64,000 nucleotides of DNA from Selenomonas ruminantium AC2024 (lineage in GTDB: Bacteria; Bacillota; Negativicutes; Selenomonadales; Selenomonadaceae). Under the pieces are notes generated by a model. It had not been told where the DNA came from, searched no databases, and was given only the letters and a program-made list of their open reading frames with translations. Shown here one piece after another: positions 21,720 through 28,363 of this stretch (position 1 is the first letter of the stretch; every line of letters begins with the position of its first letter). The position numbers were made by a program, and so were the translations under genes. The stretch lies in NCBI RefSeq assembly GCF_000687995.1, contig NZ_JIAC01000001.1, positions 186,001-250,000 on the forward strand, in the 5' to 3' direction.

Positions 21720-22520
21720 ATGTATTGGCAACAGCGATTCGACCGCCAAAATCCGGATGCTGAGTTAGAATCAAAAATCAAAGCTATTCGGCAAAACAAC
21801 AAGGACTTTGGTTATCGTCGAATCTGGGGTAAGCTCCGCAAAGAGGGCCTTTTAGTCAATCGCAAGAAGGTTCAGCGACTTGTCCAGAAATTAGGGCTAC
21901 AGGTAAAAGCTTTCTCTCACAAGAGCCGCAAGTACAGTTCCTACAAAGGTACTGTTGGGCGTATTGCACCCAATCGGCTGCGTCGCCGCTTCGATACATG
22001 TATCCCACATCAAAAAATCACCACAGATACCACTGAATTTAAGTATTATGAAATGGACACCAACGGGAATATTCTTACACGCAAGGCATATCTAGACCCG
22101 TTCCTTGACCTTTATAATCGTGAAATCATTAGCTTTAGTATCACCAAACGGCCATCATCACAAGGCATTATGTCTGCTTTGGATAAGGCAATTGCCATTA
22201 CCTGCGACTGCCCTTATCGTCGAACGTTCCATTCCGACCAGGGATGGGCTTACCAAATGGGCAGCTATGTAGGCCGATTAAAGGAAGAACGAATTTTTCA
22301 AAGTATGTCTCGCAAAGGCACCTGTCTGGATAATAGCGTGATGGAAAATTTCTTTGGCCTGCTAAAACAGGAAATCTATTATGGGCATACCTATCACAGC
22401 TTCGAAGAACTTGAACGAGCTATACGGCATTACATCACATACTACAATAAGCACAGAATCAAAGCTAAGCTGGGGTGGCTCAGCCCAGTAGATTACCGAT
22501 TACGTCATGCCGCAGCGTAA
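21720..22520 (+). CDS. IS3-family OrfB transposase (DDE catalytic domain)
   Basis: Integrase-type catalytic domain, 266 residues from the first ATG. The frame is open further upstream and is entered by a -1 shift from OrfA. An HTH_21-type region (NKDFGYRRIWGKLRKEGLLVNRKKV) is followed by the DDE core: Asp in ITTDTTEF, Asp in FHSDQGWAY, and Glu after NSVMENFFGLLKQE. It is apparently intact, so the element may be active. Confidence 0.94.
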   Translation: MYWQQRFDRQNPDAELESKIKAIRQNNKDFGYRRIWGKLRKEGLLVNRKKVQRLVQKLGLQVKAFSHKSRKYSSYKGTVGRIAPNRLRRRFDTCIPHQKITTDTTEFKYYEMDTNGNILTRKAYLDPFLDLYNREIISFSITKRPSSQGIMSALDKAIAITCDCPYRRTFHSDQGWAYQMGSYVGRLKEERIFQSMSRKGTCLDNSVMENFFGLLKQEIYYGHTYHSFEELERAIRHYITYYNKHRIKAKLGWLSPVDYRLRHAAA

Positions 22521-23091: not shown

Positions 23092-26000
23092 CTATGCGTC
23101 TATTTCCTCTTTATGCCACTCCCCAAGCAGCTGTTCCGCCCGCTGCCGCACCCAAAGGGCCTGCTGCTGGCGCTCTGCGGCGGAATTTTCTGCGGGCGTA
23201 GTTTCTCCCGGCACAATCCCGAGGTCTGCCAGCTGGGCTTTTAGTTTTTCCAGCGCGGCTTCGGGATTCAGGTACCAACTGCTGCCCCGCACGCGGAGGA
23301 AATGCCAGCCCAGGCGTTCCAAGACCGCCTGACTGTAGCGCTGGCTGGCGGCTTCTTTGATGCTGTCCACCCAGTGCTCGCCGTCGCAGGCAACGATAAC
23401 CCGGCTGTTGCCGCTGACTGCGGCCACAGGCACGCGCAAACTGCCCACCGCCATATCCTGCAGAATCTGATAGCCTTCGGCCTGCAAGCTGCGGGTGACG
23501 GTAAGTTCCAAAGATGTAGGCTGCTGAGGTTCTCTGTCCCCCAAGCCTGCGTCCGGATTTTCTGCATATTCGATAAGCCCCCGGCGCAAATCGCCCTCTT
23601 TGAGGGCCGCCGCAGCCATGGAATGAATGACCCAAAGCTGGTCGCGCGCACGGCTGGCGGCGACATTGTAGCGCTTGAGGGTACTACCGGCATGGCCGTC
23701 CCCCACAAGGCGCAAGGGGGTATCTTCGGCAGGGCTGTCCACGAGCGACAGGAAGATAACATCCCGCTCGTCGCCCTGAAAATCTGCGGGACTTCCGCAG
23801 AGGAAATCGCAGGCTTCCAAGGCGCCAATGCCAATGCGTTCTGCCGCCAGTTCCCGGATGAGTTTTCCCTGCTCGTCGCCTAACAGGGAGATGGCACCGA
23901 AGCTCTTGCCCTGATAGGCAGGTTCCTCCAGGCAGGCCGCCAGCACTGCCACAATGTACTCGGCTTCGGCCAGATTTTTCTTGCCGTCCCGCTGGCCCTC
24001 AACCTGCACAGGCACCAAGGGCTGCAGACTGCTTCCTCCAGACTCCCGCAAGGGGCGGATACGACCGTCATAAGCCAGCTGATTGGAATAGCCGATGATT
24101 TCCGGCACGCAGCGGAAATGTTCCGTCAGCATCCGGGCGGCAAAATTCATCTGGGCAATATCGTAGAGGGAAGAATCCATTGTATAGAGAGAAGCGTGTT
24201 TGATTACGCCGTCGATGGTCGTGCCCTGCAGATGGGTGATTTCGGCCGCTGTCACGCCGACGGCTGCAGGGCTCACCTGCTTGTCATCCCCCACGATGAT
24301 GATTTTCCTGCCGAAGTAGAGCAAGGGCAGAGCCGTAATATCCGCCTGACTGGCTTCGTCAATCAGGATGATGTCAAATTTGGGGCTTGCGGGATTAAGG
24401 TTCTGCCAGACACGGGACAGGGGCATAATCCAGGCGGGCACCGCACGCTGCGCTTCCAGCATGCAGTCCCTTGCCTCCCGAATATGGCGGGCCGCATAGC
24501 GCCCCTTGCCCTTGCCGAGCTTCTGTACCGCTTTGCTCCAGCCCACCAGACTGGCCTGCAGGCCGGTGCCGGACACATTTTCCAGTAAGTGCTGCCAGGC
24601 GCGGGTTTCCGCCAGTTCCGCCGTCACCTGACGCAGACGGCTCGTAAGTTCTTCAATCTCCCCAGCCAGTGCCTGAGCATCAGCCTTGGGCAGCTCGCCA
24701 AGTTCCCGCTTGAATTGGGCGTAAAGCCAGGCATCGCCGATATTTTCCGGCACCTGTGCCTCTCCGTCACGGCCATCCTGCCCTGCAATCCGCGCCGCCC
24801 ACTGCGGCGCAAGTTCTGCCAGCCGTTCCAGATATTCCTGCCTTTTTTCGAACAAGGGCAGGAGTTTTTCGTAGGCTGCCAGTTTTTCATAAGCGGCGGC
24901 ATAGGCCGCGCTGTCGCCGTCAGCCAGAGCCGCACCGAACTGCCGTGCCAAAATGCCGTCAGCTTCGGCAATGGCCGCCCGCGTCTCCCGCAGGCTGTCT
25001 GCCGAGTGCTGCCGTCCGGCCTGCATCAGCAAAAGCTGCTGCCAGCGAGGGAAATCCTCCCGCAGCCAGCGCAGCTGGTCCGCTAGTTCCCCATGAGGGG
25101 TGGCAAAATTGGCAGGGCGATAGACAAGATTCATATTCACGCCGGCCTGACGCCAGAGCAGCAGCAAATCCTGCCAGACATTTTCCTGCCAGGAAAGGTA
25201 GCCCTGAATTTCCCGCCAGCGGGCGCTTAACAAATCGTCGCAGTCGTCCCCGGAGGCGGCCAGTTCCTCATAGGAAACCATACCGTATGGTTCCAACAGC
25301 TGGCGCCACTTGACCCGCACTTCGCTGCGGGCCTGCTGCAGGGCCACATACTGCATGGCCAGCTGGCAGTCCCGCCGACTTTCGAGTCCGTGGCCGTCGA
25401 TGACAAATTCCCGCTGCACCGCCTTCCAGCCGCTGTGGCAAAGCTTGCGCCACCAGGACAGGCCGCCGTTATCAAAGGTCTCGGACATTTCCGCCAGGGT
25501 CTGAATCAGCTCCTGGTTGAGCTCCCGCTTGCCCTGATAGGCAAACTCCACCCCAAAGAACTGGGTCAGGTTCTGCTGTTTCAGCTGCTGTACCCGGGCA
25601 ATGGAGCGGCCCAGCATCTGCCACATCTCCAGATGAGCCCCCTTGAGCTTGCCGGCCAACATGGCCTCCTGAGCCCATTTTTCCTCCAGCCGGGCAAAGT
25701 CAATCTGATCATAGAGCTCCCCGGCCTCCCGCAGCCTGTCCAGGGAAAGCTCCCCGGCCACCTGCTGTCCCTTGCGGCACAAACAGCCCACTTCGTCCAG
25801 CGTGACATCCTGCAGGCCCGCCAGGAGCTCCTGCCGCTTATCCTGTTCCGAGGCGGCCAGCTCAATCAGCCGTCCCGCTTCCTCCGGGGACAGCATGCGC
25901 CCTCTGTCCGGCAAATCCTCCGCGATTTCCCGCAGGCTTTCCGCCGTAAATACGCCGTTGCTCCGATAGAGGTCGGCAAGTTCATCCTGGCTCAGAGGCA

Positions 26001-27576
26001 GCACGCCTTCGGCCACAGGGCCCTGCACCACCTCTGCCAGCTCCTGATGGTCATGGATAAAAGCCGCCATGCGGGAGGGAGACCATGCCTTGCCCCCCAG
26101 CACAAAATAATCCCGCTTGGCCTCATAGCGCTGCATATCCGCCAGCACCGTGCGCTTTTCCCGCAGGGCATGGAGCAGGGACTGGCGCTCTTCTGCCAAA
26201 CGCGTGCCCCGCTGGGCAAGCTCCGCCCCATCGCTATGGGCCAGCCGCTCGCAGATGCCGGACACCGACCGCTCCATATCCCCCTTGGCATCATCAATCA
26301 GGGACACGCACAAATCCTGAATCCCTGCCGGCAGTTTTTCCTTCAATACCGACAGTGCCTTGTTGGTGGCACTGGTCACCAGCACATGCTGGCCCTGGGC
26401 CAGAAAATGGCCCAGCAGATTGGCAATGGTATGGGTCTTGCCCGTGCCGGGAGGCCCCTGCACCACCACCGCCGGTGAGGCGGCAATCTTCCGGGCAATG
26501 CCCAGCTGCTCCGCGTTGGCGGCTTTGGTCAGCAGAATATCCTCAGCCTCACCCCGGATGTCATCGAGATTCAGGGTTTCCGGCTCCGCCTTTTCCTGAG
26601 GAGCGTCCGGGTCCACAATCCGCAACAGAGCCTCGGGCACATCCCCCTCCTGCTCAATGCGGGCCATGATGGCGCCGATGGAACGCTCCGTCCCCGGCTG
26701 CACCTTCCGCAAGAACAGCACCTGCCTATCATAGGTCAGATACCAGTCCGTGGGCAGCACATCAAAACGGTTGGCCGCATAACGGCAGTTGGGCGTGAGA
26801 GCTCCGGCATTCTCCGCCAGAAAGGCCTCCATATTCTCCGCCCAGGGATGCAAATCCGCCTCATCCAATGCCTCGGCAAAGGCCCGAATCCCCTCGGCCT
26901 CCACCCCCGGCATTTCCTGAAACATATCCACATAAAGTTCCGTGGGATATTCCGCAGACAAAAGCTGCATCTTGCCCTTGTTATCGTAATGCAGGCGCAC
27001 CCGCTTCAAAATAATCGGATGATTGATGGCCGAATCCAAACCGCTCAAAAAAAAGCCATTGCCCGCCACAAGTTCCAGCCTATCCGGGTCTTTGCGCAAT
27101 TTGTCGTAAAGCTCATAGAGCTGCATAAAGAGTTCCTGCGTGCGGCTCTTGACCATTTCCCCGGCCCGCCAGAGCGTGCGCTGCCGCTTCCATTTTTCCA
27201 AAGCCGCCAGACGCACCCCGGAATCCACAAACCGCTCCGTCACATCACCGAGCCGTTCGTCATGGCGCAGGCGTTCTTCCCGCACCTCGATATCCGTCAC
27301 GGCAAAATCCCGCCAGTTGGGCGTTCGAATCCAGCCCAAGAGGTCAAAGGGCAGTTCCGGGCAGGGAATAAACTCCGGCTTTTCCACTTCCAGCAGAACA
27401 TCCTCGCTGACGCCTTCCGCCTGCGGCAGCACGCGAATCCGCTTAGGGTCCACGGGCAACTCGTCCAGGAACAGCGACCACTCCTCCTCTTTGATACTGC
27501 GCACCAATTTTTGCCGCAGGGAAGCCACCTTGCGGATATAATCCAATAACTTTAAGACCTTTTTCTGGTTATCCAT
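23092..27576 (-). CDS. Large SF1 helicase with C-terminal nuclease-like domain
   Basis: Protein of about 1494 residues. It has Walker A QGPPGTGKTHT near 375, Walker B IILIDEASQAD near 1072, a motif III-like GDDKQVSP, and late SF1 motifs DFQGDERDVIFLSLVDS and NVAASRARDQLWV near 1306. This is the AAA_11/AAA_12 Upf1-like arrangement with a very long helical insert. The last 100 residues (ACDGEHW, LERLGWHFLRVRGSSWYLNP) match DUF559/Vsr-like endonuclease domains. ATG at 27576 is preferred (GAGGT 5-9 bases upstream). The frame opens at 27630, but that stretch encodes the DnaA-box palindrome. Relatives occur among defence genes; the role here is not known. Confidence 0.85.
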   Translation of the reverse strand: MDNQKKVLKLLDYIRKVASLRQKLVRSIKEEEWSLFLDELPVDPKRIRVLPQAEGVSEDVLLEVEKPEFIPCPELPFDLLGWIRTPNWRDFAVTDIEVREERLRHDERLGDVTERFVDSGVRLAALEKWKRQRTLWRAGEMVKSRTQELFMQLYELYDKLRKDPDRLELVAGNGFFLSGLDSAINHPIILKRVRLHYDNKGKMQLLSAEYPTELYVDMFQEMPGVEAEGIRAFAEALDEADLHPWAENMEAFLAENAGALTPNCRYAANRFDVLPTDWYLTYDRQVLFLRKVQPGTERSIGAIMARIEQEGDVPEALLRIVDPDAPQEKAEPETLNLDDIRGEAEDILLTKAANAEQLGIARKIAASPAVVVQGPPGTGKTHTIANLLGHFLAQGQHVLVTSATNKALSVLKEKLPAGIQDLCVSLIDDAKGDMERSVSGICERLAHSDGAELAQRGTRLAEERQSLLHALREKRTVLADMQRYEAKRDYFVLGGKAWSPSRMAAFIHDHQELAEVVQGPVAEGVLPLSQDELADLYRSNGVFTAESLREIAEDLPDRGRMLSPEEAGRLIELAASEQDKRQELLAGLQDVTLDEVGCLCRKGQQVAGELSLDRLREAGELYDQIDFARLEEKWAQEAMLAGKLKGAHLEMWQMLGRSIARVQQLKQQNLTQFFGVEFAYQGKRELNQELIQTLAEMSETFDNGGLSWWRKLCHSGWKAVQREFVIDGHGLESRRDCQLAMQYVALQQARSEVRVKWRQLLEPYGMVSYEELAASGDDCDDLLSARWREIQGYLSWQENVWQDLLLLWRQAGVNMNLVYRPANFATPHGELADQLRWLREDFPRWQQLLLMQAGRQHSADSLRETRAAIAEADGILARQFGAALADGDSAAYAAAYEKLAAYEKLLPLFEKRQEYLERLAELAPQWAARIAGQDGRDGEAQVPENIGDAWLYAQFKRELGELPKADAQALAGEIEELTSRLRQVTAELAETRAWQHLLENVSGTGLQASLVGWSKAVQKLGKGKGRYAARHIREARDCMLEAQRAVPAWIMPLSRVWQNLNPASPKFDIILIDEASQADITALPLLYFGRKIIIVGDDKQVSPAAVGVTAAEITHLQGTTIDGVIKHASLYTMDSSLYDIAQMNFAARMLTEHFRCVPEIIGYSNQLAYDGRIRPLRESGGSSLQPLVPVQVEGQRDGKKNLAEAEYIVAVLAACLEEPAYQGKSFGAISLLGDEQGKLIRELAAERIGIGALEACDFLCGSPADFQGDERDVIFLSLVDSPAEDTPLRLVGDGHAGSTLKRYNVAASRARDQLWVIHSMAAAALKEGDLRRGLIEYAENPDAGLGDREPQQPTSLELTVTRSLQAEGYQILQDMAVGSLRVPVAAVSGNSRVIVACDGEHWVDSIKEAASQRYSQAVLERLGWHFLRVRGSSWYLNPEAALEKLKAQLADLGIVPGETTPAENSAAERQQQALWVRQRAEQLLGEWHKEEIDA

Positions 27577-27609
27577 ATAAACCTCAGAACCATTCACATT
27601 TTCACCAGG

Positions 27610-27665
27610 GTTATCCACAGATTTATCCACTAATCCACAATTTTGGGGATAAATCTGTGGATAAC
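27610..27665. promoter_or_regulatory. Palindromic cluster of DnaA-box sequences
   Basis: TTATCCACA occurs at 27611-27619 and its complement TGTGGATAA at 27656-27664, both perfect DnaA boxes. Near matches lie at 27623-27631, 27631-27639 and 27644-27652. Together they form an inverted repeat with 21-base arms (one mismatch) and a loop of about 14 bases, between the helicase gene and the divergent exported-protein gene. Confidence 0.7.
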
Positions 27666-27745
27666 TTCCTTTTGCTCGTACACCTTTTTAAGATATTCGA
27701 CTGATTTCGGCCAGTTCCTGCTAAAATTTCTAATGGCATTTTAAT

Positions 27746-27811: not shown

Positions 27812-28363
27812 ATGAATAAAAAATCCTTTGCCCTGCTGGCGGCGCTGACCGCAGGAAGCTGCTGTCTGAGTACAGTCATTACAGGCGGTACAGCCAGTGC
27901 TGCGCCGCTGGGCAGCGTGGGCATGCCCAATCCCATGAAGGCCTATGACAGCGTGGCGGAAGCCAAAGCCGCAGCCGGTTTCCAGCCTCTCTACCTGCCG
28001 TCCATGACGGGCTATCATGTGAGCCATGTCTGGGTGATTGCTGGCGATACCATCGATATCGAATACACCGCTGATGGGAAAATCGCCACAAAATTCCGCC
28101 TGCGCACCGCCCGCTGCACAGAATTGACCAACGACAATATCAGCGGCATTTACGGCGCAAAATGGGAAAAGCAGACCATCGGCGGCCTGCCTGTGTCCGT
28201 GGCGCAGGTTCCCGCCGAACGCAAAACCTACCCCGAGGGCTACGCCGCCCACTGGACGTACAACAACATGCTCTTTGCCGTCAGCGCGGAAAACATCGGC
28301 AATCCGGAGTTCATGCACCTGCTGACAGACGGCCTGGTGGAAATGAGCAAGAACTATTTCTAA
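27812..28363 (+). CDS. Exported protein, DUF4367-like
   Basis: About 183 residues with a signal peptide (MNKKSFALLAALTAGSCC, cleavage near ASAAP). The mature part has SVAEAKAAAGFQPLYLPSMTGYHV, GDTIDIEYTADGK and a C-terminal segment that resembles DUF4367-type domains found in outer-surface or anti-sigma-associated proteins. AAGGAGG lies 8 bases before ATG 27812, so upstream in-frame starts are rejected. A hairpin terminator follows at once. The function is unknown. Confidence 0.8.
   Translation: MNKKSFALLAALTAGSCCLSTVITGGTASAAPLGSVGMPNPMKAYDSVAEAKAAAGFQPLYLPSMTGYHVSHVWVIAGDTIDIEYTADGKIATKFRLRTARCTELTNDNISGIYGAKWEKQTIGGLPVSVAQVPAERKTYPEGYAAHWTYNNMLFAVSAENIGNPEFMHLLTDGLVEMSKNYF

What the first reader, a model, noticed from the sequence alone, without database searches (positions are those of the whole stretch)
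27608..27668. DnaA boxes arranged as a 21-bp-arm palindrome between divergent genes
Two perfect DnaA boxes (27611, 27656) and three near matches fit in 55 bases, organised as one inverted repeat. They lie between the large helicase/nuclease gene and an exported-protein gene, far from dnaA in this window. It could be a DnaA-titrating or reactivating site, or place the helicase under replication-linked control.
Basis: partly seen in the sequence, partly recalled or inferred. Interest (0 to 1): 0.6.

Follow-up and report, generated by a model that had tools for sequence, protein, structure and literature searches.

The report
DnaA-box cluster controlling a helicase gene
In a Selenomonas-group rumen bacterium a tight cluster of binding sites for the replication-starting protein DnaA sits just behind the likely promoter of a large helicase gene and has been kept there in related species, so this helicase is probably switched by the replication machinery; it looks like a new case of a known kind of control.

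Summary
Window 27610-27665 holds two perfect and three one-mismatch DnaA boxes in 54 bp, arranged as an inverted repeat, 33 bp upstream of the start codon of an SF1 helicase/nuclease-like gene (ATG 27576, minus strand) in a Selenomonas ruminantium-group genome. The block is present in 19 of 19 same-genus genomes that have the orthologous helicase, although the gene on its other side mostly differs. It is absent from 5 of 5 more distant orthologs (52-54% identity). The boxes are conserved better than the hairpin. The first box lies 29-31 nt behind a conserved -10-like element in 19 of 19 genomes, which puts the block in the 5' leader if that promoter is real. It is one of seven groups of perfect DnaA boxes outside oriC in this chromosome, all within 410 kb of oriC; the other six lie in matching DNA in a second complete chromosome. 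Best explanation: DnaA binds here and tunes (most likely represses) helicase transcription, while the site also holds some DnaA, like the oriC-proximal clusters of Bacillus subtilis. I found no support for a DARS- or datA-like site, but could not test that. New member of a known kind; DnaA binding is untested.

The parts
27611..27619 (+). perfect DnaA box TTATCCACA (gene-proximal end of the block)
   Evidence: alignment
27623..27631 (+). DnaA box, one mismatch (TTATCCACT), 12 bp in tandem with the previous box
27631..27639 (+). DnaA box, one mismatch (TAATCCACA)
27644..27652 (-). DnaA box, one mismatch (TTATCCCCA), 12 bp in tandem with the next box
27656..27664 (-). perfect DnaA box; the promoter-proximal box of the block
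   Evidence: 29-31 nt from the -10-like element in 19 of 19 genomes
27610..27665 (.). whole block: inverted repeat, arms 27610-27633 and 27642-27665
27695..27700 (-). inferred -10 element of the helicase promoter (TCGAAT here and in G011, TAGAAT in the other 17 of 19 genomes)
   Evidence: no transcript data
27719..27724 (-). inferred -35-like element (TTAGCA, 18-bp spacer)
   Evidence: weak, inferred
27582..27585 (-). inferred ribosome-binding site GAGG of the helicase gene
   Evidence: GAGG invariant in the 19-genome alignment
23092..27576 (-). SF1 (UPF1/Dna2-like) helicase with C-terminal MTES_1575 endonuclease-like domain, 1494 aa; the gene the block goes with
   Evidence: Pfam AAA_11, AAA_12, MTES_1575; orthologs in 19 of 22 genus genomes
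27812..28363 (+). divergent exported-protein gene, not consistently next to the block
   Evidence: no Pfam or NCBIfam match; beside the helicase in 2 of 22 named loci; 'exported' is judged from the signal-like N-terminus, no tool run

Best explanation
The block is a conserved DnaA-binding cluster in the 5' leader of the helicase gene. DnaA binds the two tandem box pairs and the extra box cooperatively, some 25-80 bp behind the transcription start, and thereby tunes helicase transcription to the amount or ATP-state of free DnaA; repression by blocking RNA polymerase is the likeliest sign. Bound DnaA is at the same time withheld from oriC, so the site adds to seven oriC-proximal clusters that may buffer free DnaA. 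Shown here: the boxes, their conservation, their link to the helicase and to the -10-like element, the genome-wide set of clusters. Inferred: DnaA binding, the promoter and start, the sign of regulation, the buffering.
For: All 19 genus genomes with the ortholog (62-100% identity) carry at least 4 boxes with at most one mismatch, at least 2 of them perfect, in the same place. A pattern of the block hit 15 of 380 class genomes, all in this genus and 14 of them at this gene, with 0 hits of the reversed control. Box columns are 92% conserved, spacer columns inside the block 68%, the stretch between -10 and block 62%. From the -10-like element to the first box is 29-31 nt in 19 of 19, while first box to ATG is 85-97 (the listed 75 for L014 becomes 88 with the ATG used). 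The upstream neighbour is the same in only 2 of 22 named loci. Tandem boxes 12 bp apart recur before dnaA and in the cluster at 542 kb. Seven groups of perfect boxes outside oriC all lie within 410 kb of it, and the other six lie in matching DNA in G017. DnaA is an established activator or repressor of replication and repair genes (passages of PMC8203912), and removing six clusters outside oriC makes B. subtilis initiate early (passages of PMC5295017 and PMC13220808).
Against: No binding, expression or transcription-start data. The promoter is inferred from an alignment and is weak in the window's own genome (TCGAAT; TTAGCA). The fixed -10 to box distance spans only about 30 nt among related genomes, so it is modest evidence. 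The 7-genome clade has a changed layout, and in G005 the second box is degraded. The class-wide pattern was made from this genus, so it would miss other layouts elsewhere; it also missed 5 genus genomes that have the block. Three genus genomes have no helicase match (G008, G014, G015; G014 is 88% complete), and more distant orthologs do without the block. One review says the B. subtilis clusters play no significant role in replication initiation, which weakens the buffering part.
Confidence: 0.62

Rival explanations
1. Pure DnaA reservoir: the cluster only titrates DnaA as one of several oriC-proximal clusters, and its place before the helicase is incidental.
For: Seven groups of boxes outside oriC, all within 410 kb of it, some beside genes with no evident replication link, such as MFS / alpha-amylase-family, CYTH / MgtC and asparaginase genes. 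Spacing patterns of two of them recur in other genus genomes. B. subtilis clusters are thought to act on free DnaA.
Against: The block goes with the helicase gene while the other neighbour changes. It sits between the inferred promoter and the gene at a near-fixed distance from the -10-like element in 19 of 19 genomes.
Confidence: 0.22
2. RNA-level control: the inverted repeat acts as a hairpin in the leader mRNA, perhaps with DnaA on RNA as proposed for the E. coli his operon (passages of PMC10989985).
For: Strong predicted hairpin in the window's own genome (DNA z -8.4; RNA z -5.4) and in L012 (z -4.8); L019 also has a long stem (z -2.5). Weak covariation signal: 2 of 24 pairs changed on both sides; the score is reached by 8 of 500 shuffles.
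Against: 13 of 24 pairs never vary. The spacer pair at columns 19/50 is broken in 6 of 10 distinct rows. Of six leaders folded (of 19), L017 and the two from the 7-genome clade fold otherwise (z -3.1, -1.8, -3.0).
Confidence: 0.06
3. A datA- or DARS-like locus that converts the nucleotide state of DnaA.
For: Clustered boxes outside oriC.
Against: datA and DARS work with IHF and, for DARS2, Fis in E. coli (passages); B. subtilis is reported to lack IHF, datA and DARS. The block sits before a gene with which it is conserved. IHF/Fis sites or genes were not searched for here.
Confidence: 0.04
4. Another dimeric regulator recognises the inverted repeat and the match to DnaA boxes is secondary.
For: Symmetry of the repeat.
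Against: The conserved unit is the 9-mer box, which recurs at dnaA/oriC; symmetry between the arms is not fully kept.
Confidence: 0.06

Closest known systems
oriC-proximal DnaA-box clusters of Bacillus subtilis (Okumura et al. 2012; the paper was not held, seen only through passages of the reviews PMC5295017 and PMC13220808)
   Same: Several clusters of DnaA boxes outside oriC (six in B. subtilis; seven groups here); a bipartite oriC on both sides of dnaA.
   Different: Another bacterial class and other genes; here one cluster goes with a helicase gene and has a conserved layout. No deletion phenotype known.
DnaA-regulated promoters (review PMC8203912, passages: dnaA, dnaN, nrd, polA, uvrB, recN; in Caulobacter dnaB, itself a helicase gene)
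   Same: DnaA boxes before a DNA-metabolism gene.
   Different: Target is an SF1 helicase/nuclease-like protein distantly related to anti-phage proteins; boxes lie downstream of the inferred promoter; regulation not shown.
E. coli datA / DARS1 / DARS2
   Same: Non-origin DnaA-box loci.
   Different: No evidence here for nucleotide conversion or for IHF/Fis; position before a gene with which the block is conserved.
ProA and Hhe anti-phage proteins (NCBIfam NF058533, NF042953); PDC-S37 (PADLOC)
   Same: The helicase matches long stretches of these models.
   Different: Scores (196 and 137 bits) are far below the curated cut-offs (1500 and 2000), so it is not filed there; it is present in 19 of 22 genus genomes.

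Membership tests
Extra-origin DnaA-box cluster (B. subtilis type) | several DnaA boxes close together, beyond chance, outside oriC | tested here: met
   oriC located at dnaA-dnaN, 310 kb away
Extra-origin DnaA-box cluster (B. subtilis type) | lies in the origin-proximal part of the chromosome together with sister clusters | tested here: met
   seven of seven groups within 410 kb (group = perfect boxes within 120 bp); six others in matching DNA of G017
Extra-origin DnaA-box cluster (B. subtilis type) | bound by DnaA in the cell and affects initiation timing | not testable with these tools
   needs ChIP and replication assays
DnaA-regulated promoter | boxes at a promoter, conserved with the gene | tested here: met
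   19 of 19 orthologs in the genus; -10 to box 29-31 nt; the promoter itself is inferred
DnaA-regulated promoter | transcription changes with DnaA level or nucleotide state | not testable with these tools
   no expression data
DARS / datA | IHF/Fis-assisted nucleoprotein complex changing the nucleotide on DnaA | not testable with these tools
   no biochemical test possible; IHF/Fis genes and sites not searched for
Regulatory RNA hairpin | base pairing kept by compensatory change across relatives | tested here: inconclusive
   2 of 24 pairs with a change on both sides, 13 invariant, the spacer pair at columns 19/50 broken in 6 of 10 rows; 12 of the 19 genomes were in that alignment
ProA / Hhe anti-phage protein (the helicase) | curated NCBIfam cut-off | tested here: not met
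   196 against 1500 and 137 against 2000 bits

The most novel reading that the evidence does not exclude
Selenomonas uses DnaA to hold down a genome-defence-like or fork-processing SF1 helicase, so that loss of free DnaA (over-titration, replication arrest or phage takeover) releases it: a replication-state sensor wired to a Dna2/anti-phage-like helicase, within a conserved set of seven oriC-proximal clusters.
Probability: 0.25. Interest if true: 0.65.

Novelty: new member of a known kind. Interest (0 to 1): 0.42.

Why it matters
It adds a conserved, gene-linked DnaA-box cluster in the Negativicutes, where the searches made here of open-licence papers found nothing relevant, and names a concrete candidate DnaA target. 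If DnaA controls this helicase, it ties replication initiation to a DNA-processing or defence-like enzyme. The other six clusters give a ready set for testing whether oriC-proximal clusters buffer the initiator beyond Bacillus.

Tried and rejected
Hairpin reading: not the main explanation, because boxes are kept better than pairs; the weak covariation signal is reported.

GTG 27630 as the helicase start (inside the block): rejected, since orthologs agree on the ATG at 27576 and the distance from first box to ATG is 85, 88, 96 or 97.

Solitary boxes as a strand-biased signal: 64 perfect boxes outside the nine groups show strong strand bias (right arm 29 minus / 7 plus; left arm 5 minus / 23 plus; the 64 include three single boxes at or beside groups, at 523318, 526414 and 644711). 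Of 20 sampled, all from 1.08-2.24 Mb, 20 were inside a stop-free frame and 16 in the frame that reads Val-Asp-Lys/Asn, so I take this as coding bias; no gene calls were made there.

One search used a pattern with one N too many (my error) and found nothing, not even the window; one search is the corrected run. Searches probed two of the other six clusters: 14 of 22 genomes matched (13 without mismatch, one with 1) and 11 of 22 (9 without mismatch; G012 and G001 with 2-3 mismatches in unlike sequence, probably other places). Second hits with 3 mismatches in G011 (both calls) and G000 (at the 666.7-kb cluster) are other registers or another cluster. Flanks of these hits were not checked. (18-mer of the arm, up to 3 mismatches): 15 places in the genome against 0 for the reversed control.

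Paper searches that led nowhere: 0 papers each; 1, unrelated by its listing; 2, judged from the listing only; 60 papers, 10 listed, none used.

Full report
Observation. The sequence at 27600-27680 was read directly. Two perfect DnaA boxes and three with one mismatch lie between 27611 and 27664, as an inverted repeat with 24-nt arms, 92% complementary. The window shows 5 such boxes within 60 bp; none of 100 dinucleotide shuffles showed more than 2. Genome-wide, the perfect 9-mer occurs 90 times and its reversed control 9 times; an 18-mer of the arm, with up to 3 mismatches, 15 times against 0.

Setting. The window is 186001-250000 of a 2.83-Mb single contig. NCBI now calls the species Pseudoselenomonas ruminantium, class Negativicutes. 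oriC is bipartite: boxes at 523.3-523.5 kb before dnaA (523593) and at 525.0-525.2 kb between dnaA and dnaN (525296) (both genes above the NCBIfam cut-offs TIGR00362 and TIGR00663). The block is 310 kb from there.

The gene. The minus-strand gene 23092-27576 encodes 1494 aa with AAA_11 and AAA_12 motor parts and an MTES_1575 endonuclease-like domain, distant from anti-phage ProA, Hhe and PDC-S37 models and related by sequence to solved SEN1, UPF1 and DNA2 chains. Walker A and the DEAS motif are kept in the 10 aligned orthologs, apart from one Thr-to-Ala change in Walker A of L016.

Conservation. Of 22 genus genomes searched, 19 have the ortholog. All 19 carry the block: 12 with the layout of the window (boxes about -88 to -40 from the ATG) and 7 with a related layout (-97 to -30). 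In the first 12, G017, G013, G007 and G005 have 4 boxes, the others 5. Five more distant orthologs (L087, L088, L089, L094, L097; 52-54% identity) have no box within 400 bp upstream; L097 is the contig of G023, which belongs to another genus of the family, and the other four were not among the 22 genus genomes. Five still more distant homologs (L029-L033; 33-38%) have none within 600 bp. The corrected pattern hit 15 of 380 class genomes, all of this genus; 14 hits are at the helicase and one, in G015, which has no helicase match, lies between another gene and an array of five tRNA genes. Five genus genomes with the block were missed by this pattern because their second half differs, so the pattern is no proof of absence elsewhere.

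The block goes with the helicase. The window's exported-protein neighbour is found beside the helicase in only 2 of 22 named loci, while the block is present in 17 of those 22, all but the five distant ones. Box columns are 92% conserved, against 68% for spacers within the block and 62% between -10 and block (columns and genomes are not independent, and boxes were defined on the window's layout). A -10-like element (TAGAAT; TCGAAT in G000 and G011) stands 29-31 nt before the first box in 19 of 19. If that promoter is real, the block lies in the leader, between promoter and ribosome-binding site. Downstream of the block the word TGT about 24 nt before the ATG is also invariant; in the 7-genome clade it is part of a one-mismatch box.

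Boxes rather than hairpin. On the alignment of 12 of the 19 genomes (10 distinct rows), 13 of 24 pairs never vary, 2 have changes on both sides and the spacer pair at columns 19/50 fails in 6 of 10; the covariation score was reached by 8 of 500 shuffles. RNA folds of 6 of the 19 leaders gave z from -5.4 to -1.8; G000, L012 and L019 have a long stem, L017 and the two leaders of the other clade fold otherwise.

A family of clusters. Perfect boxes within 120 bp of each other form nine groups: two at oriC and seven elsewhere, at -310, -76, +18, +121, +143, +372 and +410 kb. If seven were placed at random, all falling within 410 kb either side of oriC has a chance of about 0.0002 (the limit was set after seeing the data). 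In G017, whose numbering starts at boxes with the spacing of the dnaA-upstream set (179, 11, 12 against 181, 11, 12 bp), the other six lie in matching DNA (77-82% identity). Box spacings agree at 542, 895 and 933 kb, within 1 bp at 447 kb, for the first pair only at 644 kb, and not for the perfect boxes at 666 kb; the 447-, 666- and 933-kb clusters lie inverted there. The helicase block lies 358 kb from oriC in G017, on the other arm. Spacing patterns of two clusters were found in 14 and 11 of 22 genus genomes, two of the 11 doubtful. Tandem boxes 12 bp apart occur once before dnaA, twice at 542 kb and twice in the helicase block. The flanking genes of five of the six other clusters were scanned; they have varied functions, one being nrdG.

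Mechanism. Shown: sequence, conservation, gene linkage, cluster family. Inferred: DnaA binds; it affects transcription, most likely by repression just downstream of the start; it also holds DnaA. DnaA as transcription factor for replication and repair genes, including the helicase gene dnaB in Caulobacter, and the early initiation of B. subtilis without its six clusters, are taken from passages of reviews (PMC8203912; PMC5295017; PMC13220808). PMC5295017 also says that the B. [quoted passage not shown] Of PMC4447404 and PMC10989985 I saw passages only.

Novelty. Clusters of this kind and DnaA-regulated promoters are known. In the open-licence library I found no paper with DnaA box(es) and Selenomonas (0 papers) and none relevant with Negativicutes (2 listed, judged from the listing; 0). 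The newer genus name was not searched. This is a new, well-conserved member of a known kind with an unusual target gene.

Noticed in passing
L042 (G000 541.8-542.06 kb) and L127 (G017 43.8-44.05 kb): A DnaA-box cluster 18 kb from oriC, between a CYTH gene and an MgtC-family gene. The G017 copy holds a 43-bp stretch 88% identical to the box set before dnaA of G000; in G000 the same + - - boxes stand 11 and 12 bp apart at both places.
   Followed up: partly
L045 895.1 kb, L040 447.3 kb, L043 644.4 kb, L044 666.7 kb, L046 933.1 kb of G000: Five more groups of DnaA boxes in DNA that is matched in a second complete chromosome; nearby genes are asparaginase, MFS / alpha-amylase-family, unassigned (644 kb), GGDEF / response regulator, and nrdG / MscS.
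   Followed up: partly
window 23227-23514 (helicase residues about 1355-1450): In the window and L010, L012, L016, L017 the acidic residues that three proteins of the other clade have in the endonuclease-like domain (IDMVV, AIDCDG) are replaced (VPVA, VIVACDG or VIIACDG); the nuclease may be inactive here (alignment; that these residues are catalytic is recalled).
   Followed up: no
L020-L026 upstream of the helicase (about -233/-218 from the ATG): All 7 genomes of the second clade have another box pair (TTATCCACA and an inverted one-mismatch box 15 bp on) upstream of the inferred promoter, which might let DnaA bridge the promoter.
   Followed up: no
L076 1500-1590 (G015): A genus genome without the helicase has a similar run of DnaA boxes between a gene and an array of five tRNA genes.
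   Followed up: partly
window 21720-22520: Transposase with rve and HTH_21 domains (IS3-like by recall) beyond the helicase's 3' end; no match among open frames of the 22 named loci, several of which end before that point.
   Followed up: no
G013 C27 (L018) and G006 C40 (L014): Helicase orthologs with one stop inside the match each; in L014 the frame also changes near the start, possibly an assembly error.
   Followed up: no
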